The notes below the pieces were generated by a model. The model worked only from the letters and a program-made list of their open reading frames with translations. It did not search any database and was not told where the DNA came from. DNA of 64,000 nucleotides from Henckelia pumila (lineage: Eukaryota; Streptophyta; Magnoliopsida; Lamiales; Gesneriaceae), in the NCBI RefSeq assembly GCF_033568475.1, contig NC_133122.1, forward strand, positions 179,881,449 through 179,945,448, written 5' to 3'. Below are positions 21,677 to 55,716 of the stretch, piece after piece (position 1 is the first letter of the stretch; each line of letters begins with the position of its first letter). Position numbers and translations under genes: made by a program.

Positions 21677-22075
21677 TGCATTTTATTAGTTAATTTCCAT
21701 AAATATGACAATACAAAATAATGGAAGAACGTAAATTACAAGTGCGTATACAAATAGAGAAAAAATATGTGTTGAAAAATCGCTGGTGAGTAAAAGACTC
21801 GTGAGCATGATGATCATAGTCGTTATGAAAAATATCCTTATAAATGTCATCATCTCCATCTTCGAAAAAACCGAGGATAAAATATTTTGAGAGAAAGAAT
21901 AAATTTGGTGTGATTGAAAATGAGTTTGAGTGAACATATTTATAGGGCAAAAACTAGCCGTTTTGTTACCGTTTGTGACCGTTGGGGGTAAAGAAAAAAT
22001 TGAGTATGTGTTGAATAAAAATTCGTGATAATCATGTAATGCATATAATGATAATCATAATTAAATAATTATGTA

Positions 22076-22395
22076 TATCATATCACATTATTATAAGGTC
22101 AGTGTCGTAGATAGCCTTTTATATAATGTTGTGAAATTATACCAATATAGTTAGTATAAAGTCAGGTATAGTATATCATATCACATTATTATAAGATCGG
22201 TGTCGTAGACAACCTTTTATATAATAACATGAGATTATACAAATATGGTTAGTATATAAATACACAATAATATATATCATATCACGTTATTATAAGGTCA
22301 GTGTCATAGACAACCTTTTATATAATAACATTAAATTATATATTAATATAGTTAATATATATACATAATAAATATATATCACGTTATTGTTTAAA
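22076..22395. repeat. three tandem repeats in the Copia leader
   Basis: Three imperfect units of about 100-115 bp share tatcatatcac, ttattataag, cagtgtc and acaaccttttatataata. They lie between the right LTR and gag, in the untranslated leader of the element's transcript. Confidence 0.75.
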
Positions 22396-22652
22396 AACCT
22401 TAGAGGCTTTTATACTTGTCGTATCCCTTACCGGGAGTGTGGGATGTCGTCTTAACATCCTCCCAGGATTTATAACAAGTTTTGAAAAAAACTTATTTTT
22501 TTCATAACATGATATTATATATTAATATATACACAATAAAAATATATAAACAGTAAAATAAAAATTCTTACTTGTTGAATATTTTTGACTTCTTCTTGTA
22601 TTTTGGAGCGTCGGAAAATATAGAGAACCTTCGAGCGATCGTGCTGATAACG

Positions 22653-22925
22653 TGTTGTGAAAAAGTAAAAATTTACGGTAAAAAGTAAAAACTCAAAAAC
22701 TCAAAATTCTACACTTTATAAAATTTTTCTCTCTTCACAATTGTGTTTTTCTACACAAATGGAGAGACCTATTTATAGATCTCAATTGGAGATTAGTCAA
22801 AAATTAATACATCATTAATTACATCATCACACACTAATTTTCAATATTTTACAACTCAATTTTCAACTTTCAACCTTCAACATTCAACAATAAATAATAA
22901 TATATATTTATATATATTTTCAACA
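22653..22925 (-). repeat. 5' LTR of the Copia element
   Basis: It appears identical to 16540-16812. The primer-binding region lies immediately to its left (22652 downward). Transcription of the element would start here on the minus strand. Confidence 0.95.
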
Positions 22926-28110: not shown

Positions 28111-28622
28111 CTGCAAGTTAATAATAATAAAATAAGTTATAATAATAATCTGCAAGTGCTGGTTGAGAATCCAATTCAAGATTCCCCAACAAGGTCAACA
28201 CACCTACGCTTTTAGTGTTGCATAGAAATAGAGGGATCAATTACTCACCGCTCAATTAGAAAGAGATAATAGCCAAAATTTTTTTTATAAGTTTAGTCTA
28301 TTTTGTATTTTCGTAATGAAAATATTTATTGTTTTGTTTTGATCAGGTGACTTAGATCATGTTTAGATTTTTTGTCATCTGGACACGTTACATTTATCGA
28401 TTTCATATCGGTATTTTTGTGATATCAAGTCCGTCCGGTGAAAAACAAAATTTATAGCTCCAAAAAATATATATTCAGTTTAGAAAATGCTTAATTTCAC
28501 AAGTACAACCAACACGCACGTCACGCTCCTTGAATATTCTCATTTGTCAAAAACTCAAATTTCAAGAAATTTTTTAATTTAAAAAATATTAATTTATGTC
28601 AACAACTGCTGTTTGTTCCCAC

Positions 28623-28630
28623 TATAAAAT
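28623..28630 (+). promoter_or_regulatory. TATA box of GS1-A
   Basis: TATAAAAT lies 88 bp upstream of the start codon, in a block that is alignable with the GS1-B upstream region (gcttgtccctcttgaaact versus gctggtgcctcttgaaatt). Position and sequence fit a plant TATA box with a leader of about 60 nt. Confidence 0.55.
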
Positions 28631-28717
28631 GGCTTGTCCCTCTTGAAACTGAAACATTCCAATCCAAATAATTTATTAATTGTTTGTTTGAAGAGAAGCT
28701 GCACATATTCTTGAAGC

Positions 28718-31537
28718 ATGTCTTTGCTTTCGGATCTCATCAACTTCAACCTCTCAGAATGCACTGATAAGATCATTGCAGAATATATATGGTCAGTGTT
28801 TTCTTTGTACAAGATCATTAATGCATAATATATATATATAGTCTGTGTTTTCTTTATGTCTTTTTTCACTAGTGTGTTGCTTTCATCGGTTTTTTAACGG
28901 TGATCTCTCCCGTTATGTCATTCCTTAACTACATGGATGGCGAAGTTCTCTTTGCATTTTCTGCCTCATTCGTTTGGATCACCGTGTTTTCGTTGACTTT
29001 GTTTGTCTACTAATATGTTTCTTCATACTTTTCAAGAAGAAACGAGTGTTGTGCTACAATTGTTTATACCATTTTTGTATTGTTTTGATCCCTGGTGGAA
29101 AGATTTTCTATCAACAGAGATGGTCAAATCTTATTGAGCGGATTTCTAGCTACATGGTATATTATTTGTGTTAATGTAATATATAGCTACTTGCTTAAAG
29201 ATTTTCTTTTGTTTATTTTTCACGTTCCTTGTTTAGTTTCACTTTGGTGGAGTGGAGTTGATTTGTAAGTTTTGAACAGGTAATGATTTTGTTGGTTTAG
29301 GGGGTTAAAATTTGCATATGGTTCACTTTTTATTTTTTGATCGAGGGCTCCTCTTGTAATTTTTTTCCCTGGTTATTCTATTATATTACTCATGCCTACC
29401 GGGAAACTGTTCTTCTTGGACAGACAATTTACTGTTTAATTTGCTTAAAAACTCTAAAAGAGTCTCGAGCATTTCTGTTTTTGTGGTGTATTTTCGGTCT
29501 TCATGGTGCTCTATTCGGAAAAAAGTAGTGTTTTTAAGTTATTGGAGTCGAGTAATATACTGAAAGAAATGATGCAAAAAGAGTGTATTCAGATGAGGAT
29601 CATATCTAGTTTTTAGCCTATCTATTCTGTTCAAAACCTTCTTATTCCGACGCAGGATTGGTGGCTCTGGAATAGACATCAGGAGTAAAGCAAGGGTACG
29701 TAAACCAACCCTTTTTCACATAGTTTATCCGACTTTATAAGGTTATTGAGCCAAGTTGTTTGGTTTTGACAGACTGTTCCTGGACCCGTCACCGATCCTT
29801 CAAAGCTTCCCAAGTGGAATTACGATGGGTCGAGCACAGGCCAAGCTCCAGGAAAAGACAGTGAAGTCATCATTTAGTATGGTTATTTCAAATTTTGTCA
29901 TAATATGTTTCCAAGTAAAGGTTCAACAATTAATGCATTTTTTGATGCAATGAAACAGTCCTCAAGCGATATTCAAGGACCCATTCAGGAGGGGAAATAA
30001 CATCTTAGTGAGTTACTTCTTGTACCATGAAGTTTTTTTGCGGACCATAAGCTTCTGAAATCCGAGTAGATTAAGTGATAATTCTGTGTCCCAACTACAG
30101 GTGATGTGTGATTGTTACACTCCTTCTGGTGAACCGATTCCAACGAACAAGAGATACAACGCAGCCAAGATTTTCAGCCATCCTGACGTCAAAGCGGAAG
30201 TACCATGGTACCATTTTTCCATTCTGATGCAGAATTTTCCTACTCATTTCTCTGTTTTATTTATTTATTTTGTTTTGTTTTCGAATTCCTCGTTTTAGGT
30301 ATGGTATCGAGCAAGAATACACGCTTTTGCAAAAAACTGTTAAGTGGCCTCTTGGATGGCCTGCTGGTGGTTATCCTGGACCTCAGGTGATTATCAATTA
30401 GCAGCTAGCAGCCTCAATCAATCATGTGTCTCTCTCCCATTTCCAGTTCTACATCTGCTATATTTCAATCTTTTTCTTGCAATTTAGGGGCCATATTACT
30501 GCGGTGTTGGAGCCGACAAAGCTTTTGGACGTGATATAGTCGATGCACACTACAAGGCGTGCCTTTATGCTGGAATCAACATCAGTGGCATCAACGGTGA
30601 AGTGATGCCCGGCCAAGTAAAATGCCCAACACACCTCTTCTTCTATACATACTATTTTAAGTTAGTGTTGATGTTTGTATATATATGTTCTGTATCTGCT
30701 TTTTTTCAGTGGGAATTCCAAGTTGGACCCTCTGTCGGCATTGCTGCATCTGATGAGGTGTGGATTGCTCGTTACATTCTCGAGGTAATACATTTTCCTG
30801 TTAAATGAAAGTTATCCATTAGATGGCCTCGACGATCATGTTGAAAAGTCTGTTCTCTTGTTGACAGAGGATCACTGAGATTGCTGAGGTTGTGCTATCT
30901 TTTGATCCCAAACCTATTCAGGTAAAAACCTTTCCACCACCGAATTTTTGTTGGATGTATAATGTAATCGGAGCATGAAACAGCATTTCTTGTATTCGTT
31001 CACATAGGGCGACTGGAATGGAGCTGGAGCTCACACTAATTACAGGTAATGTTTACAGTCACGATCATGTTGTGATCATCATCTTGTGAAATTAATTCGT
31101 GCTAAATCTCTTTCGATGAATGATGGTTTAGCACCGAGTCCATGAGGAAGGAAGGAGGATATGAAGTCATAAAGAAGGCTATTGAGAAGCTAGGACTGAG
31201 GCACAAGGAGCACATTGCTGCCTATGGGGAAGGCAACGAGCGTCGTCTCACAGGAAGACATGAAACTGCAGACATCAACACCTTCAAATGGGTAAAATAA
31301 CACATTCTAGCTAGTATCATGTTTTACATGTACAATGAATGAATCAGACAGATTAAAGTTGGCTGGCATTGTTTCGGACTGCAGGGAGTTGCAAACCGCG
31401 GTGCTTCCATCCGTGTGGGACGAGACACTGAGAAAGAAGGCAAGGGATACTTCGAGGACAGGAGGCCAGCCTCGAATATGGACCCGTATGTTGTTACATC
31501 CATGATTGCGGAGACAACCATACTCGGGAAGCCCTGA
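28718..31537 (+). CDS. GLN1: cytosolic glutamine synthetase GS1, copy A
   Basis: This enzyme joins ammonium to glutamate using ATP in the cytosol. Twelve exons: 28718-28791, 29656-29695, 29773-29876, 29959-30007, 30101-30207, 30299-30386, 30488-30616, 30710-30784, 30868-30921, 31008-31045, 31132-31291, 31385-31537. They give 1071 nt and 356 aa, the standard plant GS1 length, with no plastid transit peptide. The beta-grasp domain (about 19-100) is followed by the catalytic barrel. Metal and substrate residues are present: E129 and E131 (GIEQEY), E192 (NGEVMPGQ), E199 (WEFQVG), H249 (GAGAHTN), R291, E297, R311, R316. Unusual changes at usually constant positions are K66 (PGKDSEV, normally Glu), V123 (AEVPW, normally Glu), T138 and K140 (QKTVKWP). 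None is catalytic. It is the upstream member of a tandem pair with GS1-B. Confidence 0.96.
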
Positions 31538-32596
31538 ACATTTTGAATGAACAGCATTATCATGAGTTGGGAGTGCTATTTTATTTCACATTTACAAAGA
31601 AACGTGTTTTTTTAGAGAAATGAACATCAATCCTTCTATATATTTTCTATGTAGTTATATGTGTTAGAGATATTACTACTTGTTTGAATCAAGTGTTCAT
31701 TTTGTATTTCTGGGTTCAAGGTTGAGTTAGCTCTCCTCGCTTGTTGATCCAGTTTGTGAAATAACTGGACGCCTTTGTTATTAATAACGTGTAAGGATTG
31801 ATTTTCCTTTTTTAATAAAGATTTTCAGCTTTGTTATGAAAAAGAAAGAGAGAAAGTTGCCTCAATGTTTATTTTTTAGATTTGATTATGTGAAATAACC
31901 GTGAAATAAATAAAATATACAAATACCCTTGACATACTCAAATGAAATAATCATAGTTCAAATCATAAAAGGTTTTGTACATGCCGCCCATAGGGTACTA
32001 TCCTATGGGCGACATGTCCCCCCGATCGACCATTCCATCATAAAGACACTCCAACTATCCTACAATTATATCACTCTATCAATGTCTCAGAAATATATAA
32101 ATTGTAAATACATGAATAAATACATAATTTAGATGGGAAATGATCCTGTCTACATTCGAATCAACTCCATCAGACGTCCTCGGATTATTCCTAGTTGATC
32201 AAATGTGATAGGCCGAGAATGCCACCGTTCTAGTATTCAAAATCTTAGGTCGTCTACCGTCTACACTCACACTTAAATAAGCATAGATTTACGTAACATT
32301 TTGTATTTGTATATTTAATAGATGATTGTCTCGTTTATCGATGAATTTCGATTATTTGATTGATTTAAATAGTTTTTACAACTTTTAAAAATAAATAATT
32401 ATGAATTTTTTTTTAATAAATTTAAGAGTTACTTATTTTTAAAAATTGCAAAAACTACCTTAGATTTACAAAATTCTAATCAATTTTAAATTCACTATAT
32501 ATATTAATAATGATTTAGATGAATTTTAAATACAAGTGTCATTTGAAATTTGTTGTCAATTTATCGAAATTTGCCATCCAAATGCGAACTTATATC
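31538..32596. other. GS1-A 3' region and spacer
   Basis: The first 150 bases align with the GS1-B 3' region (gggagtgctattttat, ttacaaagaaacgtgtt, gaacatcaatccttctat) and are probably the 3'UTR. Beyond that I see no gene. A strong hairpin stands at 31979-32017. Confidence 0.5.
31979..32017. other. strong inverted repeat (hairpin)
   Basis: Arms acatgccgcccataggg and tcctatgggcgacatgt pair at about 15 of 17 positions around a short loop. It is GC-rich in AT-rich surroundings, without a T tract or other clue to function. Confidence 0.6.
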
Positions 32597-33081
32597 TAAG
32601 GTTGGAAAAAAAATACCGAAATGCCATCATACCGCATATATCGTTTCGAAAAAAACCGTATATACCAAAAATTTCATATCGAACTGAAATTTTCGGTATA
32701 CGATATGAAATTTTCGGTATAGGTATCGGTATATGATTTACAAAATTTCGGTATTTCGGTATATCAAAAAAATATTTAAAAAATCGGTATACACGGTATC
32801 GGTATGCACGATATCGGTATACCGAATTTTTAAATATTTTTTAAAACTATTTTTTAAAATAAATGTCGGTATACACGGTATCATACCGATACCGTACCGA
32901 ATTTCGATATACCGAAATTTTTCGATAAGAACAGTATGAATTTATGTCATACCATAATTTCGGTATACCGACATTTTGGTATACCGAAATTTTCGGTACG
33001 ACATCGGTATCGAAAATTTTCGACATGATATGCGATATTCGTTGAATATCGCAATATACCGTACCAAACCACCCCTCCTTA
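32597..33081. mobile_element. hAT-like MITE, ATACCGA family
   Basis: It shares the ATACCGA / TCGGTAT composition with 25696-26468. Its ends are TAAGGTTGG and a right end whose complement reads TAAGGAGGGGTGG. No clear target duplication, so the ends are approximate. Confidence 0.5.
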
Positions 33082-33305
33082 ATCCTTATACCTCCGAAAA
33101 ATTGAAAGAATAATTTTTTAGTTTTCATACCAAGATTTAAGTTGAATAATTTTTTTTTTTAAAAAAAATATGCAATTACTGTTCCTAGAACAATAAGAAA
33201 TCGTACTAAAAAAAAAGGGAAATCGAAAATAGAACCGTACATTTCCTGATGTTAGAAAGTTTGATAATTCTGCTGTCAAAAAAAAAATTTGTTTGATAAT
33301 TCAGC

Positions 33306-33740
33306 TACCTCCTGGGCTCCTCCTCCTGTCCGCCGCCGCCTGGTACAAGCCTCCGACGCATCACCACCACTGTCCGGTGCAGAGATCGGATCCCTTTGTC
33401 ACCACCTTTTAATCCAAAATTCCCATTCAAAATCACTCCAAACCCACGTTCTTCCTTGTGTAAAACCCCCCCACTCGCTACTGTCCATTTTCTTTTCTTC
33501 ACATGACTTTCTTCTCACAGCAACTCCACTTTCCGCCACTCGATCCACTTTCTTTGCACCCACCAATTGATATCCGAAGCAAAACGTTTACTCCCCAACA
33601 CTCCTTTTCAAGAAAAAGGAGAAATTGGGATTCCGCGGCTTTTCCAGTGATAATTGAAACATAAAGGTACCCAAAGATCTTATCTTTATGCATTCACTGG
33701 ATTAATGACTGCTTATTTAGAACTGGGCTTTCGTCTCCAG
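33306..33740 (+). pseudogene. truncated PPR pseudogene, duplicate of the 48684 gene
   Basis: The stretch aligns in order with the 5' part of the intact PPR gene: the CT/CCG-rich tract and gccgccgcctggtaca, gcatcaccaccactgtccgg, cccattcaaaatcactccaa, ttcttctcacagcaactcca, tttgcacccaccaatt, ggtacccaaagatct, then ttcactggattaatgactgc. It lacks the start-codon region and has several internal deletions and frame changes. It stops where the intact gene would read on into the repeats (about position 190 of 606). A PIF/Harbinger element begins about 120 bp downstream. It has no coding capacity now. Confidence 0.85.
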
Positions 33741-34405
33741 TGCTTCTTATTTTTATTATTATTTATTTAATGTTATTTTATGGTTTACTCAAATGTTTTA
33801 TATATGTATTACAACTTACAACCTTGCCAAATGTTTTAATAATCACTATTTATAAACCGAGAGCATCTCCAACCATCTTTCATTTTGGAGGATTGGAGGA
33901 TGGATTGGCCTTCAACCATCCTCTATTTGTGAGGATGACATATTTACGAAAATGTCATCCTTTAAAATTATTTTTTAGACTTTAAAAATGATGAATTTAT
34001 TTTTTAGTCCCTATTTTAAATTATTTTCAGTTTTTATATTAAATATTACTTGGTAAATTGGTCTAATTTTTATTATTTTGAGTGTTCTCTCATTTTATTT
34101 TTAAAATTAATTTCAGTGTTTAATTTTTTTAGTTTAATTAAATTTTATTTGTTTTTTTTTTATAATTTTTCAATAAATTAATTGTAATTTTATTATTTTT
34201 AAATAACATTAAATGAAAATTATGAACAAAGTAATTAGAAACACACAAAACAATTTAGCACAAACATTTTATTCAAAACACGATTTACTACAAACATTTT
34301 GTCGACTTAATATAACTTGGAAACCATGCGATTATTTTGACACGAGAATAAATCACCAACAAAAAAAAACACAAATAACAATAAAAATAAACACACTCGT
34401 CGCAA

Positions 34406-35433
34406 TCAAAAAAATAAACTAGTAGTCCGATAGATTGAGTTCGGGTGGTGAAGTTCCTCCAAAAAATTGTCCGAAAGGTGCAAAATTCCCAGCGGAACTA
34501 TCCCCCATCCTAGTATTTTCTTATAAATGTTTTGTTGCTGTTTGATCAAGTATGAACGCACTGACTCATCAACATACATGTGGTTCAACAATAGTATTTT
34601 ATTATCTTCCTTCTCGGCCATTATATCATTTTTTTGTCTCTCAATATCAATGAGCTCTTTTCGATGGATATCAGCATTCTCCATCACAGCCACCATTTTT
34701 TCACTACATTTGGCCATTATGGAAAGGTCATTCGAGTGTTCTTCATTAGCTTTTCTTTTTCCTTTGGCCTTTTTTATGTCAATTGAACGCTTAAAACCCC
34801 CTGATGGGCTATCTTCATCCAGGTTTATAGCAAATCCGGATAAAACTGGAGAATCGGGTGTTGGTCATTCTGTGTTGGGAGAATAGTTTGATTGGGATGA
34901 ATCGATGTTCCCATGGTTTGGTACAAAATTAGGTAAAACAGCGTTGGATGGTCTAAACTTCTCTTGATCTTTAAATAACTGCCAAACATGATCCAACCTC
35001 CAAGTCAACCCAGATGATTGCTTAAATAATTCTTTTGCTCGATCCAACTACAACCACATATAATTTGTATCTTAGTTGCATACTATAAAAATAAAATTCA
35101 TTTGAAATATATATTCTAACAAAATTTACTACTCACAATGTCTTTCTCAGAAGCACCACTTGGACGGCTAAGTTCCACCTGGCTAACACATGAACTAAAG
35201 TTTTGAACAATCTTGTTTATGTTGAACCAGCGGCATTGGAGGGCTTTAATAGTACGAGGCTCTGCTGAGCTATCAGTGACTTGTTCGTTGTAGGTTGCTG
35301 CAACTCGCGACCACAACTTATCACGTGATTGGTTTATACCAATTATTGGATTTTGGGAGACATCAAGATACGCCATGATAAGGAGTTTGTCCTCCTCGAT
35401 TGAGAAAGCAACACCGCGTTTAGATGAAGCCAT
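34406..35433 (-). pseudogene. Harbinger ORF1 (Myb/SANT-like), copy 1
   Basis: Exon 1 is 35433-35137 (MASSKRGVAFSIEEDKLL... W-x-R-V) with a GTGAGT donor; exon 2 opens at 35047 (DRAKELFKQSSGLTW) after a TAG acceptor. The N-terminal SANT/Myb-like domain would bind the element's ends and recruit the transposase; the C-terminal half is a charged NAM-associated-type coiled region (KELIDIERQKNDIMAEKE). An in-frame TGA follows NYSPNTE at about 34865, and the last residues are out of frame relative to copy 2. Probably non-functional unless the TGA is read past. Confidence 0.8.
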
Positions 35434-35689
35434 TTGATAGTAAATAATTAGTTTATGTATCTGATATATGTGAATGCTAAGAATGTCACTTCTATTTATA
35501 GCTCAACAATTTTGGATAACAAATATGGTCCAACGGTTAATATTAAAGGATATATGATCTGACGCTTCTAATCAACTTACTTGGATGTATGTTTCTTGAG
35601 ATACGCAAATTAAATCTGAAAGGTGTATATTTAGATAACTAATTTTTAAAAAAACATGCAAAGATATGTTATGTGTACAGATGAGTAGT

Positions 35690-36260
35690 CAAATCAGTCA
35701 TCAAGACCTGCGAGTAGTGGCCAACTAGACATCACATCTTTTATGTCTTTCATTGCACGATTGTAGACAACACGTGATAAAGCTGTGCAATAGTTGAGTA
35801 TTGAGTTGTCTCTGATCGCGGCTAGACAACCCATGCCAGCTTCTACTAGAAGACATGACTACTTGCAAATAAAGTATTAAAATATGTAAATATATATATA
35901 CATGACCTTTATATGTATGTATTGTACATGACCAGTCGCATCATTTGTCACTACCCGTGAGTAGTGGACAACTAGACACACCCATGCCAGCTGCTAGTAG
36001 AAAACACGAGTACTTGCAAATAGACAAATAATGGAGTATTTTATTGTAAATAAAATGACACAAGTGGATAATCCATTATTGGATTCCATTTCAATGACAC
36101 AACCCGTGATATTTATGTACAATCAAGTATTAAAATATGTATATATATATTCTCAAAAAAAAAAAATGTAAATATATGTTATATACATAAATGACTAGTC
36201 ACATCACTTGCCACTACCCGTGAGTAGTGGCCAACTAGACACACAATTTTTGTGTTTTTT
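35690..36260. repeat. palindromic repeat array between the divergent Harbinger genes, copy 1
   Basis: The hairpin-forming cactacccgtgagtagtg occurs at 35949-35966 and 36222-36239, and a partial copy (cgagtagtggccaactagac) lies near 35711. Each is followed by caactagaca. The segments catgccagct..ctagtagaa and tacttgcaaata repeat with them, giving a unit of roughly 230-270 bp. It sits in the shared promoter interval of ORF1 and the transposase. Confidence 0.75.
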
Positions 36261-36366
36261 TTATTGTAAACATACAATTTTAGATATTCCGTGATATTTA
36301 CTCATCCTACTGAATATGAGTATTTAAGACTCAGGACTTGGTCTTCATTTACACATCCTACTGAAA

Positions 36367-37724
36367 ATGAATTTTCATGAGGGAGGTCCTTCAAATTTTT
36401 CTTTCAATGAACCCTCGCCACCATCTGATGGTGAAGAGCAACCTAGTGTCATGATAAAGAATGAGTTTCATCTCATTGACCAACAACAAATGGTTTTAAG
36501 TCAACTAATTAGTGCTACCGTTGCCACCGAGTACTTCCAAGAAAATGATAATTTGCAACATGGAGGATCAATTCCTGGCCATATTGTGATTAATCGAGAT
36601 AGATTGGCCGCTGATCAACACTTATTTGCTGACTATTTTTCAGAGTCTCCGATGTACAATGAGTCAATGTTCAAACGACGTTTTCGAATGTCTCGCCGCC
36701 TATTCTTGCAAATTATGGAATCCGTTGAAAAGCATGACAATTACTTTGTTCAGAAAGTAGATGGATTAGGGAGACCCGGGTTGTCACCACACCAAAAGAT
36801 AACTGCTGCATTGCGAATCTTAGCTTATGGTACATCGGCAGATTCAACGGATGAGTATATTAAAATCGGTGAGTCTACTGCAATTGAAAGTTTGAAAAGA
36901 TTTTGTCTGGCTATGGTGGAGGTGTTTGGTGACTGGTATCTTTGGTCTCCCAATACTGAGGACATTGAAAGGATTCTCCTTATTGGAAAACAACGTGGAT
37001 TTCCGGGGATGCTGGGAAGCCTCGATTGTATGCATTGGAAATGAAAAATTGTCCTACCGGTTGGGCTGGACAATATAAAGGTCGTAGCGAAAAACCAACT
37101 ATCATTTTGGAGGCCGTAGCAGATTACGAGTTGTGGATATGGCATGCATATTTTGGTTTGCCAGGTTCAAACAACGATATTAATGTGTTGTCAAAATCTC
37201 ATTTATTTGCTAATTTGGCCAACGGGGTAGCTCCTCCCGCTAACTATGTTATACAAGGAAAAGAATACACAGTGGGATATTATCTAGCCGACGGTATATA
37301 TCCAAAGTGGGCTACTCTAGTGCAAACAATTCACAATCCACAAGGTCCAAAGAGACAATATTTTGCAGCACGACATGAAAGTTGTCGAAAAGACGTTGAA
37401 CGCGCATTTGATGTACTTCAATCAAAGTGGGCAATAATTACTGGACCAGCCCGATTATGGAGCAAACGAGTCTTGCATGATATCATGACCACATGCATAA
37501 TAATGCATAATATGATTATTGAAGATGAAAGGGATGAGCATGTATCAGTCACAAATTATCGCGAAGCGCCCACCCCATATATTGAAATGACACATGATGA
37601 GCATGTTCGATTTCAAGAGTTTCTTGCACGACATCGTCAAATAAAAGATAAGTCGGCTCACTATGCACTTCGGGATGCTCTTATCGACCATTTGTGGGAG
37701 GAATATAGTAATTCAGAATTTTAG
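36367..37724 (+). pseudogene. Harbinger DDE transposase (ALP1-like), copy 1
   Basis: About 452 codons. The DDE triad is recognisable: D in LGSLDCMHW, D in GSNNDINVLS, E in RKDVERAF. The helix-turn-helix-like N-terminal part includes MSRRLFLQIMESVEKHD. Near 37042, right after the first D, one G is missing compared with copy 2 (ggaaatgaaaaa against ggaaatggaaaaa), which shifts the frame and splits the gene into 36367-37044 and 37026-37724. Confidence 0.9.
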
Positions 37725-38774
37725 TATTCCTAATTGTCAATTGATGTATTGTTCTTTAAACTTTTATGTGTTGTTTATATTTATGTTAATTTTTATTTTG
37801 TCTGTATGATTAATGTTTGTGTTGTGTGCAATGCAACTGTTTTCATGTGTTTGCAATTTAATTACCAAATAAATGCATATTTTTTTTAAAAAATAACGAG
37901 TCGTGTAAATTTAATTTTTTAATATGTTTAACATTATAATACATAATTATTAATATATTACACGATTTTAATTTTAACCATATCCAATTAATATAGTTGA
38001 AAAACATATTATGTAATTTTTTTATTATATAAATATATATGTTTTAAAAAAATAAAATAGAAAATGGAGTATTTGGTAATATTTAGGGGATATGGGTTGG
38101 AGAAATTTTTTGAAAATAGAGATCACGAATCTCTATTTAGAGGATAGAGGATGAAATATAGAGGATATGAGTTGGAGATAGCCTAAGAGCATCTCCAACC
38201 ATCCTCTATTTGCATTCTCCATTTTGGAGGATGCTATAGTGATCCTCCATATTTGGAGGATCACTGTTCAAATAGAGGATGGATTTGGAGGATAACATAT
38301 TTACGAAAATGTCATCCTCCAAAATTATTTTTTAGACCTTGAAAATGATGAATTTATTTTTTAGTCCCTATTTTAAATTATTTTCAGTTTTTATATTAAA
38401 TATTACTTGTTAAATTGGTCTAATTTTTATTATTTTGAGTGTTCTCCCATTTTATTTTTAAAATTAATTTCAGTGTTTAATTTTTTTAGTTTAATTAAAT
38501 TTTATTTGTTTTTTTTATAATTTTTCAATAAATTAATTGTAATTTTATTATTTTTATATAACATTAAATGAAAATTATGAACAAAGTAATTAGAAACACA
38601 CAAAACAATTTAGCACAAACATTTTATTCAAAACACGATTTACTACAAACATTTTGTCGACTTAATATAACTTGGAAACCATGCGATTATTTTGACACGA
38701 GAATAAATCACCAACAAAAAAAAAACACAAATAACAATAAAAATAAACACACTCGTCGTAATCAAGAAAATAAA

Positions 38775-39789
38775 CTAGTAGTCCGATAGGTTGGGTCCGG
38801 GTGGTGAAGTTCCTCCAAAAAATTGTCCGAAAGGTGCAAAATTCCCAGCGGAACTATCCCTCTTTGCTAGTCTTTTCTTATAAATGTTTTGTTGCTGTTT
38901 GATCAAGTATGGACGCACTGACTCATCAACAGACATGGGGTTCAACAATAGTATTTTATTATCTTCCTTCTCGGCCATTATATCATTTCTTTGTCTCTCA
39001 ATATCAATGAGCTCTTTTCGATGGATCTCAGCATTCTCCATCACAGCCACCATTTTCTCACTACATTTGGCCATTATGGAAAGGTCATTCGAGTGTTCTT
39101 CATTAGCTTTTCTTTTTCCTTTGGCATTTTTATGCCAATTGAACGCTTAAAACCCCCTGATGGGCTATCTTCATCCAGGTTTATGGCAAATCCGGATAAA
39201 ACTGGAGAATCGGGTGTTGGTCATTCTGTGTTGGGAGAATAGTCTGATTGGGATGAATCGATGTTCCCATGGTTTGGTACAAAATTAGGTAAAACAGAGT
39301 TGGATGGTCTAAACTTCTCTTGATCTTTAAGTAACTGCCAAACATGATCCAACCTCCAAGTCAACCCAGATGATTGCTTAAATAATTCTTTTGCTCGATC
39401 CAACTACAACCACATATAATTTGTATCTTAGTTGCATACTGTAAAAATAAAATTCATTTGAAATATATATTCTAACAAAATTTACTACTCACAATGTCTT
39501 TCTAAGAAGCACCACTTGGACGGCTAAGTTCCACCTGGCTAACACATGAACTAAAGTTTTGAACAATCTTGTTTATGTTGAACCAGCGGCATTGGAGGGC
39601 TTTAATAGTTCGAGGCTCTGCTGAGCTATCAGTAACTTGTTCGTTGTAGGTTGCTGCAACTCGCGACCACAACTTATCACGTGATTGGTTTATACCAATT
39701 ATTGGATTTTGGGAGAAATCAAGATACGCCGTGAAAAGGAGTTTGTCCTCCTCGATTGAGAAAGCAACACCGCGTTTAGATGAAGTCAT
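38775..39789 (-). pseudogene. Harbinger ORF1 (Myb/SANT-like), copy 2
   Basis: Same architecture as copy 1. It shares the in-frame TGA after SPNTE (near 39221). It has its own TAG at the end of exon 1 (after RPSGAS, near 39502) and a one-base deletion near 39127 (ggcatttttatg against ggccttttttatg). It retains a C-terminus, ending GPNLSDY, that copy 1 has lost. Confidence 0.8.
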
Positions 39790-40039
39790 TTGATAGTAAA
39801 TAATTAGTTTATGTATCTGATATATGTGAATGCTAAGAATGTCACTTCTATTTATAGCTCAACAATTTTGGATAACAAATATGGTCCAACGGTTAATATT
39901 AAAGGATATATGATCTGACGCTTCTAATCAACTTACTTGGATGTATGTTTCTTGAGATACGCAAATTGAATCTGAAAGGTGTATATTTAGATAACTAAGT
40001 TTTAAAAAAATATGCAAAGATATGTTATGTGTACAGATG

Positions 40040-40610
40040 AGTAGTCAAATCAGTCATCAAGACCCGTGAGTAGTGGCCAACTAGACATCACATCTTTTAT
40101 GTCTTTAATTGCATGATTGTAGACAACACGTGATAAAGCTGTGCAATAGTTGAGTATTGAGTTGTCTCTGATCGCGACTAGACAACCCATGCCAGCTGCT
40201 ACTAGAAGACATGACTACTTGCAAATAAAGTATTAAAATATGTAAATATATATATACATGATCTTTATATGTGTGTATTGTACATGACCAGTCACATAAT
40301 TTGTCACTACCCGTGAGTAGTGGACAACTAGACACACCCATGCCAGCTGCTAGTAGAAAACATGAGTACTTGCAAATAGACAAATAATGGAGTATTTTAT
40401 TGTAAATAAAATGACACAAGTGGATAATCAATTATTGGATTCCATTTCAATGACACAACCCGTGACATTTATGTACAATCAAGTATTAAAATATGTATAT
40501 ATATATTCTCAAAAAAAAATGTAAATATATGTTATATACATAAATGACTAGTCACATCACTTGCCACTACCCGTGAGTAGTGGCCAACTAGACACACCAT
40601 TTTTGTGTTT
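40040..40610. repeat. palindromic repeat array, Harbinger copy 2
   Basis: Same array as at 35690-36260: cactacccgtgagtagtg at 40305-40322 and 40565-40582, and a partial cccgtgagtagtggccaac near 40063. Confidence 0.75.
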
Positions 40611-40718
40611 TTTTATTGTAAACATACAATTTTAGATATTCCGTGACATTTATTCATCCAACTGAATATGAGTATTTAAGACCCAGGACTTGGTCTTCAT
40701 TTACACATCCTACTGAAA

Positions 40719-42086
40719 ATGAATTTTCATGAGGGAGGTCCTTCAAATTTTTCTTTCAATGCACCCTCGCCACCATCTGATGGTGAAGAGCAACCTAGTG
40801 TCATGATAAAGAATGAGTTTCATCTCATTGACCAACAACAAATGGTTTTAAATCAACTAATTAGTGCTACCGTTGCCGCCGAGTACTTCTAAGAAAGTGA
40901 TAATTTGCAACATGGAGGATCAATTCCTGGCCATATTGTGATTAATCGAGATAGATTGGCCGCTGATCAACGTTTATTTGCTGACTATTTTTCAGAGTCT
41001 CCGATGTACAATGAGTCAATGTTCAAACGACGTTTTCGAATGTCTCGCCGCCTATTCTTGCGAATTATGGAATCCGTTGAAAAGCATGACAATTACTTTG
41101 TTCAGAAAGTAGATGGATTAGGGAGACCCGGGTTGTCACCACACCAAAAGATAACTGCTGCATTGCGAATCTTAGCTTATGGTACATCGGCAGATTTAAC
41201 GGATGAGTATATTAAAATCGGTGAGTCTACTACAATTGAAAGTTTGAAAAGATTTTGTTGGGCTATGGTGGAGGTGTTTGGTGACTGGTATCTTTGGTCT
41301 CCCAATACCGAGGACATTGAAAGGATTCTCCTTATTGGAAAACAACGTGAATTTCCGGGGATGCTGGGAAGCCTCGATTGTATGCATTGGAAATGGAAAA
41401 ATTGTCCTACCGGTTGGGCTGGACAATATACAGGTCATAGCGGAAAACCAATTATCATTTTGGAGGCCGTAGCAGATTACGAGTTGTGGATATGACATGC
41501 ATATTTTGGTTTGCCAGGTTCAAACAACGATATTAATGTGTTGTCAAACTCTCATTTATTTGCTAATTTGGCCAACGGGGTAGCTCCTCCCGCTAACTAT
41601 GTTATACAAGGAAAAGAATACACAGTGGGATATTATCTAGCCGACGGTATATATCCAAAGTGGGCTACTCTAGTGCAAACAATTCACAATCCACAAGGTC
41701 CGAAGAGACAATATCTTGTAGCACGACATGAAAGTTGTCGAAAAGACGTTGAACGCGCATTTGGTGTACTTCAATCAAAGTGGGCAATAATTACTGGACC
41801 AGCCCGATTATGGAACAAACGAGTCTTGCATGATATCATGACCACATGCATAATAAGGCATAATATGATTATTGAAGATGAAAGAGATGAACATGTATCA
41901 GTCACAAATTATCGCGAAGCACCCACCCCATATGTTGAAATGGCACATGATGAGCATGTTCGATTTCAAGAGTTTCTTGCACGACATCGTCAAATAAAAG
42001 ATAAGTCGGCTCACTATGCACTTCGGGATGCTCTTATCGACCATTTGTGGGAGGAATATAGTAATTCAGAATTTTTGTATTCCTAA
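40719..42086 (+). pseudogene. Harbinger DDE transposase (ALP1-like), copy 2
   Basis: About 455 codons in one frame, with two nonsense codons: TAA at 40890-40892 (copy 1 has a sense codon) and TGA at 41493-41495 (tatgac against tatggc in copy 1). The frame at the site of copy 1's frameshift is intact (CMHWKWKNCPTGW). DDE residues are all present. The C-terminus reads through the copy 1 stop for three extra residues. Confidence 0.9.
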
Positions 42087-42794
42087 TTGTCAATTGATGT
42101 ATTGTTCTTTAAACTTTTATGTGTTGTTTATGTTTATGTTAATTTTTATTTTGTCTGTATGATTAATGTTTGTGTTGTGTGCAATGCAACTGTTTTCATG
42201 TGTTTGCAATTTAATTACCAAATAAATGCATATTTTTTTAAAAAAATAACGAGTCTTGTAAATTTAATTTTTTAATATGTTTAATATTATAATACATAAT
42301 TATTAATATATTACACGATTTTAATTTTAACTATATCCAATTAATATAGTTGAAAAACATATTATGTAATTTTTTTATTATATAAATATATATGTTTTAA
42401 AAAAATAAAATAGAAAATGGAGTATTTGGTAATATTTAGAGGATATGGGTTGGAGAAATTTTTTGAAAATAGAGATCACGAATCTCTATTTAGAAAATAG
42501 AGAATGAAATATAAAGTATATGAGTTAAAAATGGCCAAAGCGAACGATACTCCTTGGTTCGTTTTGGTGTTGCATGGACACATATGGACAGCGTAGCCTG
42601 TTGTATAATCAATTGCGGTTCAATAAAAAAAATTATATTTCCCAAAAAAGTTACGGAATTTATAAAATGTTTAATTCCAAAAACATAGGCAAGCCCCACG
42701 TCACGCTTCTTGAATATACATTTGTCAAAACCATATCAAAGAATTCTCTTTTTCATAAATAATCATTCATGTGAGCTGCTGCTGATTTCACACC

Positions 42795-42801
42795 ATAAAT
42801 A
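42795..42801 (+). promoter_or_regulatory. possible TATA-like element of GS1-B
   Basis: ATAAATA lies at the place corresponding to the GS1-A TATA box, 88 bp before the ATG. It departs from the consensus, so initiation may be weaker or elsewhere. Confidence 0.3.
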
Positions 42802-42882
42802 TGGCTGGTGCCTCTTGAAATTGATGCATCCCAATCCAAATAATATATTGTTTGAAGAAAAGTTAGAAAATATTCTTGAAGC

Positions 42883-46424
<3,542 letters not shown>

Positions 46425-47825
46425 AACATTTTGTATGAGTTTGGGAGTGCTATTTTATGTCTCATTTACAAAGAAACGTGTTGTAGAAAAGAACATCAAT
46501 CCTTCTATGTGTTTTCTATATGAGTTATATGTTGGCTATCGAATGCAGTTCCCTAAAAAATTGAAGGTATCTATTTTATTTACCAAAAGTTCCGCAATGG
46601 GTTTGCGTTCGACCAATTATCATGTGATACAATTTGGAACTATTAATGAAGAGTTGATATTTACACTTTATTTTGTGTTATTTATATTCCACTCCATGTG
46701 TAAAGTGGAATGAAAATTTATTTACAAATGGAGTGCAAATAACAAAAAATGGAGTGTAAATTTTAACTCCCATAATGATATCCTCTTTAAAGTTTTTTAG
46801 AACTACTTTAGAAATATTATATATCAACAAATTTATTGAAAGAAATATTAATTTCTTGATGATATTTTTCATTTGAAAATATTACAAAACATGATATTTT
46901 TTCAGGTTCAAATATTTTTGATTGAATATTTACGTAGATTTGTTAATATTTTGATATGTTATTTTCTAGTATTGTTATTATCAATTATTAACATCGAAGA
47001 CAACACTTAATGCATAGTATTGGAAGATGTTTTCCAGTTTTGGCAGAACGAAATTTGTATTTGATTTTTTTTATTTTGATTATTTAGGATGTAATTTGGT
47101 TTCTCAACTTGTTGAGAAATTTAGTCTTTATTGATTTTCATAAAAATCATTAGTATTGTTTTGTAAAACCTATATAAGTTTTTCTAGCGATTATTTTGCC
47201 TTGAAACACTCGCACAAGTACTAGTTATTTGTGCATAATTATCTATGGTTTTATTTGTTTTATTCGTGTTTTACTATTTTCGCTCCATGTTGTCTCTGGT
47301 GTTGCCAACACCGTAGATAATACGAACTCTACACGAATTTAAGATAGATCGCAATTATTCCATACATTTATAATTATGTTTAGAATAAAGTCACCAACTT
47401 ATAATGCTAAAAAGGATGTAAGGCCAACATTAATTTTTAATTTTTGGTTATTTTGATATAATTAACGACGTGACAATTTGATATGTCATTATTTTAGTGT
47501 CACTATATATATATTTTTTTGATATCACGTTAGCATTTTTAATGTTACGTCGATAATTATATTATATCGAAATAGTCGATAATTAAAAGTTAGTATATCA
47601 AAAATTAAATATAAGAACGTTAATATACTAAATAAAAAACTGACAAATTAATTGAAAAGGAAAAAGCTATATTACCTTATTTTTAACCAAATATGGTACA
47701 AACCGCCCTAACTTGTAATTCCTTTGTTTTAAAAGACATCGTTTAAAGCTTCAAAAAAAAAAAAGAAAAAAAAAAGGCATCTCCTTTTTTTTTAAAGGGC
47801 AATTTTCCCATTTTTAAAGTTTAAA
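46425..47825. other. GS1-B 3' region and spacer with small foldback repeats
   Basis: The 3'UTR-like block aligned with GS1-A ends near 46530. A 103-bp foldback lies at 46659-46761, and a second inverted repeat at about 47400-47650 (cattaatttttaattttt / ttaaaagttagtatat with taattaacgacgtgaca / tgttacgtcgataatta). Around 47030-47330 the sequence has a retroelement-LTR flavour but no definable ends. No gene is supported. Confidence 0.45.
46659..46761. mobile_element. small foldback/MITE-like element
   Basis: Left arm atttacactttattttgtg and right arm, in complement atttacactccatttttt, pair over most of 103 bp, with a second pair cactccat / atggagtg inside. No coding capacity and no convincing target duplication. 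Confidence 0.5.
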
Positions 47826-47833
47826 ACTTATAA

Positions 47834-48556
47834 TAGGGGGGATCGATTAGGGCCTGTCCCGTAACCCCCTTACCCGATTCCCGTTTCGATAAGAATTGAG
47901 ATATTTTTTTAACCCGATCCCGCACCCGAGAAATATTGGGACCCGAATTTTCGGGATCCCGAACATTCCGAATCTCATCGGATCAAAAGAGGGTAATCCC
48001 GAACAATACTTTTTTGAAAAACTTTTTTATGATTTTTTTATTAAAAAAATTTATGAAGAAACTCAAAGAATTTCTTAGTACATTACAAATAAATTAAAAT
48101 TTCTTTGTATATAAGCATTAAAAACTAAAACATCTTCTTAGTACATTACAAATAAACTAAAACAACTACTTGATTAATAAATAAAAAACATATAATTATT
48201 CATAATAATAAAAAAAACAAAATAAAAATTTATAACTCAATGTTAATATTAAAAAAGATAAATATAAATATTAAAAAATAATTATATAGTAGATAATTAT
48301 AAAACATTAATATTAAAACAAGAAAATTTTAAAAAAATTCAATTTTTATTAAAAAATATTATTAATATATTCGGATCGGATAGAAAATTCTATCGGGTAG
48401 AGTTGTGTATCTCGATCCCGATCTCTAAATTGATCGGGTCGAGAAAAATCACGACCACTCGAATCGAGAAAAGTTTGGTCGAGAAAAATTCGAAATGGGA
48501 CGAAACGAGTTGGGAATCGGAAAGGCTCGATAATTTTAAGAATTTTGCAAGCCCTA
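47834..48556 (+). mobile_element. hAT-like non-autonomous element, GGGACGGG family, copy 1
   Basis: It starts TAGGGGGGATC and ends GCAAGCCCTA. Flanks acttataa (47826-47833) and ccttataa (48557-48564) match at 7 of 8 positions. The ends are rich in CCCGATCCCG/CGGGATC words and the centre is A/T. An inverted family member is at 59598-60288. It stops about 120 bp before the PPR start codon, so it may lie in or near that promoter. Confidence 0.75.
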
Positions 48557-48683
48557 CCTTATAATACATTTGAAACATGAACCAAAATCTCAATGTCTCC
48601 ATAAAATGGAAAAAAAAGCAATTACAATTCCTACAAAAAAGTGAACTCATGAAAACTGAAGTGGGAGTGGGAAAATCGCTGAT

Positions 48684-50504
48684 ATGGCTACCAAGAAGAT
48701 TTCAAGAACATCCGTCCATCTCTTACCACCTCCTCCATTCCACCACCTGTACTCCTCCTCCTCCTCCGCCGCCGCCTGGTACAAACCTCAGCCGCATCAC
48801 CACCACTGTCCGGTGCAGGACTCGGATCCCATAATCACCACCCTTTCTCAGGCCATCCAAAATCCCCATTCAAAATCACTCCAAACGTCTCTCAAACGCA
48901 TTCTCCCTTCTGTAGAACCCCAACACATAATAACCCTTATCACCCTAAACCCACACTCGCTGTCTCCACACTCTCTATTTTCTTTTTTCACATGGCTTTC
49001 TTCTCACAGCAACTCCACTTTCCGCCACACCTTGCACTCTTACTGCACGATGATCCACTTTCTTTGCACCCACCAATTGCTTTCGGAAGCAAAAAGTTTA
49101 ATCCAAACAGTTGTTTCAAGAAAAGGAAAGAATTCGGCTTCTGCTGTTTTTGGAGTAATCATTGAAACCAAAGGTACCCAAAGATCTGATCTTTATGTAT
49201 TCACTGGATTAATGACTGCTTATTTAGAACTGGGCTTTGTCTCCGATGCTATCCAATGCTTCAGGTTGTCTAAAAATCATAAATTTCGAGTTTCCTTCGA
49301 CGCTTGTAGGAAATTGCTTGAACATTTAATGAAGTTGAAGTCTTTCAAGTTGGTTTGGGGGTTCTACAAGGAGATTTTGGAATGTGGGTATCCAGCAAGT
49401 TTGTATTTTTTCAACAATTTAATGCATAGATTTTGTAAAGAAGGAGAAATAATGGTTGCCCGGTCTATTTTTTGTGAAATCGGAAAATGGGGTTTGAGGC
49501 CAAGTGTTGTATCTTTCAATACTCTAATAAATGGTTATGTTAAGCTTGGGGATTTGAACGAAGGGTTTAGGTTGAAAGCTTCGATGGAGGCCAGTGGGCT
49601 TCAACCTGATATTTATACTTACAATGTTCTAATCAATGGAATGTGCAGAGAGGGTCGAATGGATGATGCAAATGAATTGTTCCTTGAGATGTTTAACAAA
49701 GAATTGGTTCCAAACTACGTCACTTTCACAACATTGATTAATGGCCATTGCAAGAATGGTAGGATGGACTTGGCCATGGAGGTATATCAAAGAATGCTGG
49801 GAGAAAGCTTAACTCCTGATTTGATCACTTATAATACGATTCTCAGCGGTTTTTGCAGGAAGGGTGAAATTAAGAAAGCGCAAGATCTTGTTTTTGAGAT
49901 GTGCACAAAGGGATTGAAGCCTGATAAAATCACGTACACAACACTAATTGATGGGTTTTGTAAGGAGGGAGATTTGGACAAGGCATTTGAATATAGGGAA
50001 AGAATGATTAAAGAAAGTATTGTGCTTGACGATGTTGTTTACACAACCCTTATTTATGGCTTGTGTAACGAAGGGAAAACTTTTGATGCCGAAAAAATGT
50101 TGAGGGAAATGTTGAGTGTGGGCTTGAAGCCTGACGATGCTACTTATACAATGGTCATTAATGGATTCTGTAAGATAGGGGATGTTAAGAGTGCTTGTAA
50201 GCTGTTCAAGGAGATGCAAAGAAATGGAAATTTACCATCGGTTGTGACTTATAATGTGCTTATGACTGGCTATTGCAAGCAAGGACAGATGAAAAATGCA
50301 AACTTGCTCCTAAATGCAATGATTAATTTAGGGGTTAATCCAGATGATATTACATATAACATCTTATTGGAGGGGCACTGCACATATGGAAACTCTGAGG
50401 ATGTTTGTAAATTGCGGAGCGCTAAAGGGCTTGTTCTCGATTATGCTTCTTATACTGATGTTATTAGCACCTTAAGTAAAACGTCTAGATCACACAGGGG
50501 CTGA
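48684..50504 (+). CDS. P-class pentatricopeptide repeat protein, 606 aa, intronless
   Basis: PPR proteins bind organellar RNA one base per repeat and direct its processing, stability or translation. The N-terminal 40-50 residues are rich in Ser, His, Arg and Pro with few acidic residues, fitting an organelle (likely mitochondrial) targeting peptide. Tandem 35-residue repeats are clear from about residue 200 to 590, with openings such as VVSFNTLINGYVKLG, IYTYNVLINGMCREG, YVTFTTLINGHCKNG, LITYNTILSGFCRKG, KITYTTLIDGFCKEG and VVTYNVLMTGYCKQG. All are plain P motifs; no E, DYW or SMR domain follows. Length and layout resemble the Arabidopsis At1g09680-type protein (from memory, unsearched). ATG 48684 is chosen because it starts the targeting-like region. 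A truncated duplicate lies at 33306-33740. Confidence 0.92.
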   Translation: MATKKISRTSVHLLPPPPFHHLYSSSSSAAAWYKPQPHHHHCPVQDSDPIITTLSQAIQNPHSKSLQTSLKRILPSVEPQHIITLITLNPHSLSPHSLFSFFTWLSSHSNSTFRHTLHSYCTMIHFLCTHQLLSEAKSLIQTVVSRKGKNSASAVFGVIIETKGTQRSDLYVFTGLMTAYLELGFVSDAIQCFRLSKNHKFRVSFDACRKLLEHLMKLKSFKLVWGFYKEILECGYPASLYFFNNLMHRFCKEGEIMVARSIFCEIGKWGLRPSVVSFNTLINGYVKLGDLNEGFRLKASMEASGLQPDIYTYNVLINGMCREGRMDDANELFLEMFNKELVPNYVTFTTLINGHCKNGRMDLAMEVYQRMLGESLTPDLITYNTILSGFCRKGEIKKAQDLVFEMCTKGLKPDKITYTTLIDGFCKEGDLDKAFEYRERMIKESIVLDDVVYTTLIYGLCNEGKTFDAEKMLREMLSVGLKPDDATYTMVINGFCKIGDVKSACKLFKEMQRNGNLPSVVTYNVLMTGYCKQGQMKNANLLLNAMINLGVNPDDITYNILLEGHCTYGNSEDVCKLRSAKGLVLDYASYTDVISTLSKTSRSHRG

Positions 50505-53673: not shown

Positions 53674-54409
53674 TGTTGGGTTGTGAAACACAAACAATCT
53701 TGATTTTGATGATAACAAAACTTGTTATTGTGTTTCTAACATATTTACTCTAGTGTGAAGTTGATAACTCAAGATGGAAGCTAAAACTCGAATTTAGCCA
53801 AAATAAATTTTTGGCGAGCTCTAGTATTTCGATGATATCTCACAGCTCAGTGATAAAAATGATTAGCTGTCAAGATGACTGCATAGAAAACTCAATTTGG
53901 AACATATCGTATTTCACTTCAGTTGAGCAAAAACGGAATCTAGATCAAACTGACGTCTCAAGACCAAACTGAATTGGATCAGTTGAGCAGAAAATAGAAA
54001 GTTGATCTCGAGCAGTTCTAGTATTTTGGCCATATCTTGCAGTTTTGTTATCCAAATAGAGTGATTCAGTAGGGTTAGAAAAATAAGACAATGATCTACA
54101 AATCATATTCAAAAGTCGAAGTCTGAATCGGAGCATAAGGAGCTGCTAAACTGCATTGAAGCTTCTGATTCGTAACAGAAATTTCTACAAAATTTCTGAA
54201 ACAGTCTAGTATTTCGAGCTTAACACTCTCATATGAAATCCAAATTGAGTGTTTCTTGATGTTGTGGAAAACCAAGATAAAGAACTACAACTTTCATGTT
54301 CATCACTTTGTCCAGATATCAATGGATCATACCAAACAACATTCAATTTGGAAATTCAGTTTTGTTTGCCAAACTGCTACCTAAACTGAAGTTGGTAAAG
54401 ATCAGTTTA

Positions 54410-55716
54410 TGTAGTGAACCTTATCGAGATCACCTACTAAACAGAACTTAGGTATGTAATTAACTTAATCAAACAGTAAACCAGAAAAAGCTGCGGAAAC
54501 AATAAACATTAATACAATCCCAAGGAAAGGAATCTGCAAATATCCAAATAGTTATACAACCAAATCGAATGCTGTATCAACCCAATACAAAAAGAATAAA
54601 CCCTAGGCGAAGCTCCAGCTGACCATCCCCTGCCTAGCCCCACTTGGATCCTCCCGCCTCATCCAATCGCAAACCTGCCCCATGGAATAGGGTGTCCAGA
54701 AATACAGAGTATGAGACATGAGCATAAAACGCTCAGCACGAGAGTATGAGTATACATGCATGCAAGTGTACCGTCTACCGACTGGAGGTAAAGAATCAGA
54801 TAACAAAGACAGATCGGGCCCTAGTATGTAGCACGCTGTGTCTTCGCTTCAGGATGTGGCTCACATACCGAAATATCAGTGGATACGCGGGACCCAAATC
54901 GATGGAAGTTCATCCACTAACAGGATAAGGTAAAACCCTACTAACAGACATCTCAAAAGAGATAGCTCAAGATGCAAATGTATGCAGCATAAAATCATGA
55001 CATATAAATCATGCAGTCACATAATACATGCATACTCAATCAGGATATCTCGAACAGTACTTTCGTACCTCAAATACTAGGCGCGCTCTACCAGCTCTAG
55101 GTCTACGCCTATAATCCGCACTACACTGCCAAATGATACTAATATCATTATAGTGCTCTAAAAGCCTTAACTAAGCTATTGCATACTCCTAAATATTTTT
55201 AAGAAGTAAAAACTATCCCTTCGTCCGTCGTTAGCCCTTTGCTGTCGATTGCCTCAAAACTAGGACACAGCTCCGCTACGACGCCTGGATCGCTATGACA
55301 CTTCCGGATTCCCAATGAGACGCCTAGAATGCCCTAGATCTAAGCTAGAAGGCTGAAGAAACGAGAGAGAAGAGATGATTGGTGTGCTCAAATGTGAATC
55401 TCGGCATCCCTATTTATAGACCACGAACGAAACGTCCATTCCTCATCGTTGCGTCCGTTCTGCCTAACGAACGTTGCTTCCGTTCTCCTTCGTTGCTTCC
55501 GATGTCCCATCAAGTGCGTAAGCAATGACGCATTTCTGATGGCACGAACGTTGCGTCCGATCCCTGAACGTTGCGTCCGTTCCTTCTGATCCTTCGGACC
55601 ATTTCTGATCATTCCGGGTCTAATCCCGGACTCCGTTAATCCATTAAGAGTTCCTTTAATCATGTTAATTGGATTAACTAGCAATTACTCACTAAAACTG
55701 GGTTCGGGCTACTACA
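54410..55716 (-). mobile_element. nested solo LTR, same family as the LTR at 64-1453
   Basis: Its plus-strand ends are TGTAGTGAACC and GGGCTACTACA. Flanks gtttA-type repeats (54405-54409 gttta, 55717-55721 gatta) match at 4 of 5 positions. It is collinear with 64-1453 throughout; the GC-rich repeat tract differs, here built on ACGAACGTTGCGTCCG words (about 55420-55590). No primer-binding site or internal sequence follows, so it is a solo LTR inserted in the older one around it. Confidence 0.8.

What the first reader, a model, noticed from the sequence alone, without database searches (positions are those of the whole stretch)
28450..50504. Tandem duplication of a [GS1 + PPR] gene pair
Seen directly: GS1-A is followed 1.8 kb later by a piece of the PPR gene, and GS1-B is followed 2.3 kb later by the intact PPR gene, in the same order and orientation. 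Upstream regions, all intron positions and the 3'UTR blocks of the two GS1 genes also align. Two unrelated single-copy genes were therefore copied together, after which one PPR decayed and both GS1 copies were kept. Retention of two GS1 genes next to loss of the PPR duplicate suggests selection on GS dosage or divergence (inference).
Basis: partly seen in the sequence, partly recalled or inferred. Interest (0 to 1): 0.7.

Follow-up and report, generated by a model that had tools for sequence, protein, structure and literature searches.

The report
Tandem glutamine synthetase genes, PPR fragment
A plant chromosome carries two side-by-side copies of a nitrogen-assimilation enzyme gene made by one old duplication that also copied part of the neighbouring gene; this is an ordinary kind of event, and the copied part of the neighbour was probably never a working gene.

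Summary
Two intact cytosolic glutamine synthetase (GS1) genes lie head to tail with the same 12 exon lengths and alignable 5' and 3' flanks, each followed by PPR sequence in the same order and orientation. Neutral divergence agrees (GS1 introns 0.22, GS1 four-fold sites 0.20, PPR four-fold sites 0.23), as one joint duplication predicts. The interpretation needs correction. (1) GS1 is not single-copy: nine further match places; the PPR gene has no close second copy. (2) That a whole gene pair was copied and one PPR then decayed is not shown: PPR-A matches only bases 59-567 of the 1818-base reading frame and stops abruptly. A breakpoint inside the PPR gene (dead on arrival) is at least as good; the junction is hidden by two tandem PIF/Harbinger-like elements and 200 bp of unassigned DNA. 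(3) Both GS1 copies are under purifying selection, but with about four-fold higher dN/dS than the other branches (0.17 against 0.04, P = 2e-6): relaxation is shown, dosage selection is not. Tandem GS1 duplicates are already reported in legumes (PMC7177731, passages). Ordinary; low interest.

The parts
28441..28717 (+). GS1-A 5' flank homologous to 42622-42882; left edge of detectable duplicate homology
   Evidence: blastn block; JC 0.255 over 259 aligned sites
28718..31537 (+). GS1-A, cytosolic glutamine synthetase, 12 exons, intact 356-aa frame
   Evidence: exon model; Pfam PF00120 and PF03951 over cut-off
31538..31662 (+). GS1-A 3' flank homologous to 46425-46532
   Evidence: p 0.094 over 106 aligned sites
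32597..33076 (.). dispersed repeat in the A spacer only
   Evidence: 39 other places among the 40 scored of 838 candidates
33307..33744 (+). PPR-A fragment (pseudogene), matching bases 59-567 of the PPR-B reading frame; gaps of 1, 7, 9, 37 and 21 bases in A and 2, 1 and 1 in B
33861..38183 (.). PIF/Harbinger-like element 1 (transposase ORFs, minus-strand NAM-associated ORF); ends read by eye
   Evidence: PF04827 and PF14303; TIR-like ends
38187..42536 (.). PIF/Harbinger-like element 2, head-to-tail copy of element 1
   Evidence: 97.3% identity, JC 0.026 over 4255 sites, PF04827, ends by eye
42537..42621 (.). short unassigned junction DNA before the GS1-B 5' flank; weak unproven match to PPR-B 50362-50426
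   Evidence: tests began at 42546; at 42540
42622..42882 (+). GS1-B 5' flank homologous to GS1-A
42883..46424 (+). GS1-B, cytosolic glutamine synthetase, 12 exons, intact 356-aa frame
46425..46532 (+). GS1-B 3' flank homologous to GS1-A
47834..48557 (.). dispersed repeat in the B spacer only
   Evidence: 39 other places among the 40 scored of 2389 candidates
48684..50504 (+). PPR-B, intact 606-aa pentatricopeptide repeat gene without close paralogue
   Evidence: ORF, Pfam PPR repeats, best other genome match 31% identity (72 of 793 candidates scored)

Best explanation
One local direct tandem duplication copied a segment that began about 280 bp upstream of the GS1 start codon, ran through the whole GS1 gene and ended in the next gene, a PPR gene. 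The right breakpoint most likely lay within the PPR coding sequence, so the upstream copy (PPR-A) was a truncated, non-functional piece from birth, while the downstream copy kept the original PPR intact. Shown: homology, order, orientation, equal neutral divergence, two intact GS1 genes under relaxed purifying selection. Inferred: the breakpoint inside the PPR gene; later insertion of the Harbinger-like pair near the junction; an age of roughly 16 million years at an assumed 7e-9 substitutions per site per year (recalled rate). Both GS1 genes probably still make cytosolic enzyme and are partly redundant.
For: Colinear blocks. Equal neutral divergence in GS1 and PPR. GS1-A and GS1-B group together with 99% ultrafast bootstrap among eight sequences of this genome; A-B dS 0.227 against 0.75 and 0.89 to the nearest other paralogue, L048 (YN00). 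PPR homology ends abruptly at 33744/49250, and the DNA search with the whole PPR frame found no other copy of the missing 3' part. PPR differences are flat by codon position (25/145, 20/144, 24/145), so no phase of coding constraint shows on PPR-A. dN/dS is below 1 for A (P = 0.034) and B (P = 8e-5), and equal dN/dS of A and B is not rejected (P = 0.93).
Against: 116 bp (33745-33860) and 85 bp (42537-42621) beside the Harbinger pair match neither the left flank nor the PPR remainder convincingly, so the breakpoint itself is not seen. A weak match of the right junction to PPR-B 50362-50426 (against PPR 49251-50504, 13 or 19 of 772 control windows and 18 or 5 of 1000 shuffles score as high for the two query lengths; several comparisons were made) would, if real, mean a longer PPR copy that was later deleted. 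The PPR N-terminal region may be lax in PPR-B too, which weakens the codon-position argument. The genome DNA search is not sensitive to old short matches: one search missed the known 77% match at 28441.
Confidence: 0.62

Rival explanations
1. One reading: the whole GS1 + PPR pair was duplicated, and PPR-A then lost its 3' two thirds and its first 58 coding bases by deletion.
For: PPR-A carries gaps of 1, 7, 9, 37 and 21 bases and lacks the 5' end, so deletions did happen; weak junction match to the PPR 3' end.
Against: No convincing remnant of PPR 49251-50504 or its 3' flank beside the junction; no third-position excess; needs an additional large deletion.
Confidence: 0.33
2. Two separate events: GS1 was tandemly duplicated alone, and the PPR piece was copied independently, for example by a transposon.
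For: The GS1-PPR spacers give no convincing alignment, and a small TIR-flanked element about 0.79 Mb away carries an 80-bp PPR-A-like piece, so PPR pieces can move.
Against: Same order, orientation and similar spacing, and equal neutral divergence; each spacer holds its own dispersed repeat, which explains part of the difference.
Confidence: 0.04
3. Assembly artefact: unmerged haplotypes joined in tandem.
For: None found.
Against: About 20% neutral divergence, different repeats in each copy, both copies inside one 204-Mb contig.
Confidence: 0.01

Closest known systems
Hypothetical tandem GS1 duplicates in legumes (P. vulgaris, V. radiata, G. max; PMC7177731, passages seen)
   Same: Adjacent duplicate cytosolic GS genes; 12 exons and 356 aa as the usual GS1 structure
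   Different: Here a piece of a flanking PPR gene was copied along; whether those legume duplicates carry neighbours was not looked up, and the plant here is unnamed
Partial tandem duplications with a breakpoint inside a neighbouring gene (recalled, general)
   Same: Whole gene plus truncated neighbour, direct orientation
   Different: The junction here is hidden by later transposon insertion

Membership tests
Cytosolic glutamine synthetase GS1 | 12 coding exons, 1071-bp CDS, 356 aa (as given in PMC7177731) | tested here: met
   Both copies
Cytosolic glutamine synthetase GS1 | Gln-synt_N and Gln-synt_C domains over the Pfam cut-off | tested here: met
Cytosolic glutamine synthetase GS1 | Active-site residues (maize numbering; the list is recalled) | tested here: met
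   14 of 14 positions looked at are identical in A, B and L048
Cytosolic glutamine synthetase GS1 | Enzyme activity and expression | not testable with these tools
   No expression data held
Single-event tandem duplication | Same order and orientation, adjacent | tested here: met
Single-event tandem duplication | Equal neutral divergence of both gene pairs | tested here: met
   (wide interval for PPR)
Single-event tandem duplication | Visible junction between the copies | tested here: inconclusive
   Interrupted by the Harbinger-like pair and about 200 bp of unassigned DNA
Single-event tandem duplication | Outgroup with the unduplicated arrangement | not testable with these tools
   No plant relatives held
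Duplication of a complete GS1 + PPR gene pair | Homology across the full PPR gene in both copies | tested here: not met
   Only 48742-49250 of 48684-50504 has a counterpart; a later deletion could also give this

The most novel reading that the evidence does not exclude
GS1-B, with substitutions at positions that are invariant in the compared paralogues (for example Y126C near the E129/E131 metal site and N310D next to R311), has become a modified subunit that changes the kinetics or regulation of mixed GS1-A/GS1-B oligomers.
Probability: 0.08. Interest if true: 0.4.

Novelty: new member of a known kind. Interest (0 to 1): 0.15.

Why it matters
It is a clear example of a tandem duplication that takes part of a neighbour along, and a caution: a missing duplicate partner need not mean that it was lost while the other was selected for. 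It adds a constrained but relaxed GS1 pair to a family of interest for nitrogen use, without changing any general view.

Tried and rejected
A larger duplication unit was considered because 63-1397 and 54409-55681 are alike in direct order (86% over the main block). The genome search shows a high-copy dispersed repeat: the 39 other scored places (40 scored of 12405 candidates) are 88-93% alike over about 54409-55716. Matches of 53.7-56.7 kb and 32.6-33.0 kb to loci near C3:180.69-180.70 Mb lie in or beside such repeats; of 53.7-56.7 kb only the inner part was shown to be high-copy.

A third GS1-PPR copy was sought: no third GS1 near the window among 70 matches, and only a short PPR-like piece at C3:180700783-180700862.

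Junction homology tests against the GS1-A upstream and the PPR remainder gave nothing firm. Full results for the right junction: against PPR 49251-50504, 18/1000 shuffles and 13/772 control windows (query to 42630) or 5/1000 and 19/772 (query to 42621); against PPR plus 3' flank, 8/1000 and 34/772 or 12/1000 and 51/772; against the GS1-A upstream, 29/1000 and 281/772 or 17/1000 and 241/772. For the left junction: 69/1000 and 39/772, 203/1000 and 106/772, 443/1000 and 81/772. Searches found each junction only in itself, but one search also missed the known 77% match at 28441, so these searches see close copies only.

Spacer alignment with the repeats left out and the low-complexity filter off gave weak same-strand colinear hits (for example 33164-33230 with 48610-48676, 66%, E 5e-5, and 32300-32430 with 47054-47180, 65%, E 3e-5), but also inverted hits as strong (E 4e-6), so I treat them as AT-rich noise; some could be real remnants.

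By counts B has more changes than A (52 against 30, P = 0.02; nonsynonymous 22 against 10, P = 0.05; 6 ambiguous changes dropped), yet dN/dS does not differ (Fisher P = 0.49; P = 0.93). Of eight fetched GS loci, two gave full exon models (L048, L049), two had no acceptable exon 2 (L050, L051; masked, not masked, whose rows for them I do not use), two lacked the first and last exons (L052, L053) and two were dropped (L054, L055). YN00 failed for 15 or more of the distant pairs. The codon model used only A, B, L048 and L049. Structure prediction was not run, since 16 solved GS sequences match at E below 1e-50. Paper searches returned nothing; of 34 and 43 I saw listings only.

Full report
Setting. 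The window lies at C3:179881449-179945448 of an 885-Mb genome in 133 contigs; contigs C1-C4 measure 183, 201, 204 and 234 Mb. Gene structures and repeats are those of a flowering plant (inference). No relatives are held, so outgroup synteny could not be tested.

Observation. Blastn gives colinear same-strand blocks over the GS1 5' flank, gene and 3' flank, and over PPR sequence downstream of each. GS1-A (28718-31537) and GS1-B (42883-46424) have identical exon lengths (74, 40, 104, 49, 107, 88, 129, 75, 54, 38, 160, 153) and intact 356-aa frames with 326 of 356 residues identical (which corrects exon 4). Both glutamine synthetase domains score over the Pfam cut-offs, and 14 of 14 recalled active-site positions are the same in A, B and L048. 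PPR-B is an intact 606-aa frame with PPR repeats.

Copy number. The statement that both genes are single-copy is half right. A protein search shows GS matches at nine places outside the window (C4:37.26, C1:91.54, C1:66.88, C4:150.64 and C2:84.61 Mb, and two each on C99 and C115; the C99 and C115 sets have equal or nearly equal scores and may be redundant contigs), and the Pfam family search adds a more distant GS-domain locus at C3:18.17 Mb. PPR-B has no close paralogue: the best other protein match is 31% identical (72 of 793 candidates scored), and DNA search finds only the A fragment and a short piece elsewhere.

One event. Jukes-Cantor divergence is 0.218 for introns 2-11 (826 sites, CI 0.183-0.256), 0.196 for GS1 four-fold sites (151), 0.255 for the 5' flank (259), 0.229 for PPR four-fold sites (71, CI 0.122-0.376) and 0.179 for all PPR sites (434, CI 0.139-0.224). 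The 3' flank is more alike (p 0.094 over 106 sites; P = 0.015 against introns), unexplained, possibly constraint. A and B group together with 99% ultrafast bootstrap; the nearest other paralogue, L048, is at dS 0.75 from A and 0.89 from B, against 0.227 between A and B (YN00; other methods give 0.218 and 0.272 for A-B).

What happened to the PPR copy. Only 48742-49250 of the gene (48684-50504) has a counterpart, at 33307-33744. The fragment has gaps of 1, 7, 9, 37 and 21 bases relative to PPR-B (and PPR-B gaps of 2, 1 and 1) and lacks the start. Differences are flat over codon positions (25/145, 20/144, 24/145), so there is no trace of a coding phase for PPR-A, although this N-terminal region may be lax in PPR-B as well. 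The simplest reading is that the right breakpoint fell within the PPR gene; later deletion is the rival. The junction is obscured by two head-to-tail PIF/Harbinger-like elements (33861-38183 and 38187-42536; PF04827 transposase; JC 0.026 over 4255 sites) and about 200 bp that I could not assign. A weak match of the right junction to PPR-B 50362-50426 (13 or 19 of 772 control windows as high against the PPR remainder) is left as inconclusive.

The spacers. The GS1-PPR spacers (31663-33306 and 46533-48741) give no convincing alignment. Each contains a different dispersed repeat (32597-33076 and 47834-48557), which explains part of the difference. The rest is unexplained; this is the main untidy point for a simple tandem duplication, since the 5' flank of the same age still aligns.

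Fate of the GS1 copies. A codon model on GS1-A, GS1-B, L048 and L049 gives dN/dS 0.169 on the two duplicate branches against 0.043 elsewhere (P = 2e-6), no difference between A and B (P = 0.93), and rejects neutrality for B (P = 8e-5) and more weakly for A (P = 0.034). Both are kept by selection, in a relaxed mode. B has the longer branch (52 changes against 30, P = 0.02). B carries changes at positions invariant in the compared paralogues, such as Y126C, K237V and N310D; A has G229E. This fits partial redundancy or subfunctionalisation. Dosage selection is possible but is not indicated by the PPR loss.

Known kind. PMC7177731 (passages seen) names hypothetical tandem GS1 duplicates in Phaseolus vulgaris, Vigna radiata and Glycine max, and gives 12 exons as the dominant GS1 structure. 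A search for papers that hold glutamine synthetase, pentatricopeptide, tandem duplication, synteny and GS1 together gave none, which says only that this combination was not found in that library. The finding is ordinary.

Noticed in passing
33861-42536: Two head-to-tail PIF/Harbinger-like elements, 97.3% alike, separated by TAA, with transposase and NAM-associated ORFs; the outer flanks (CGA and AAA) show no matching target-site duplication.
   Followed up: partly
L047:4774-4967 (C3:180700773-180700966): A roughly 190-bp element with TIR-like ends (GGGTCCGTTTGG / CCAAACGGTACC, read by eye) carries an 80-bp piece 94% like PPR-A and 81% like PPR-B: a Pack-MITE-like capture, apparently from the PPR-A pseudogene.
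   Followed up: partly
16540-22925: Copia-like element by the look of its ORFs (not tested), flanked by two 273-bp direct repeats that are 100% identical, suggesting a very recent insertion.
   Followed up: no
54409-55716: Solo-LTR-like high-copy repeat, also at 63-1397, apparently nested in another repeat.
   Followed up: partly
31538-31662 / 46425-46532: The GS1 3' flank is more alike than the introns (P = 0.015), possibly 3'UTR constraint.
   Followed up: no
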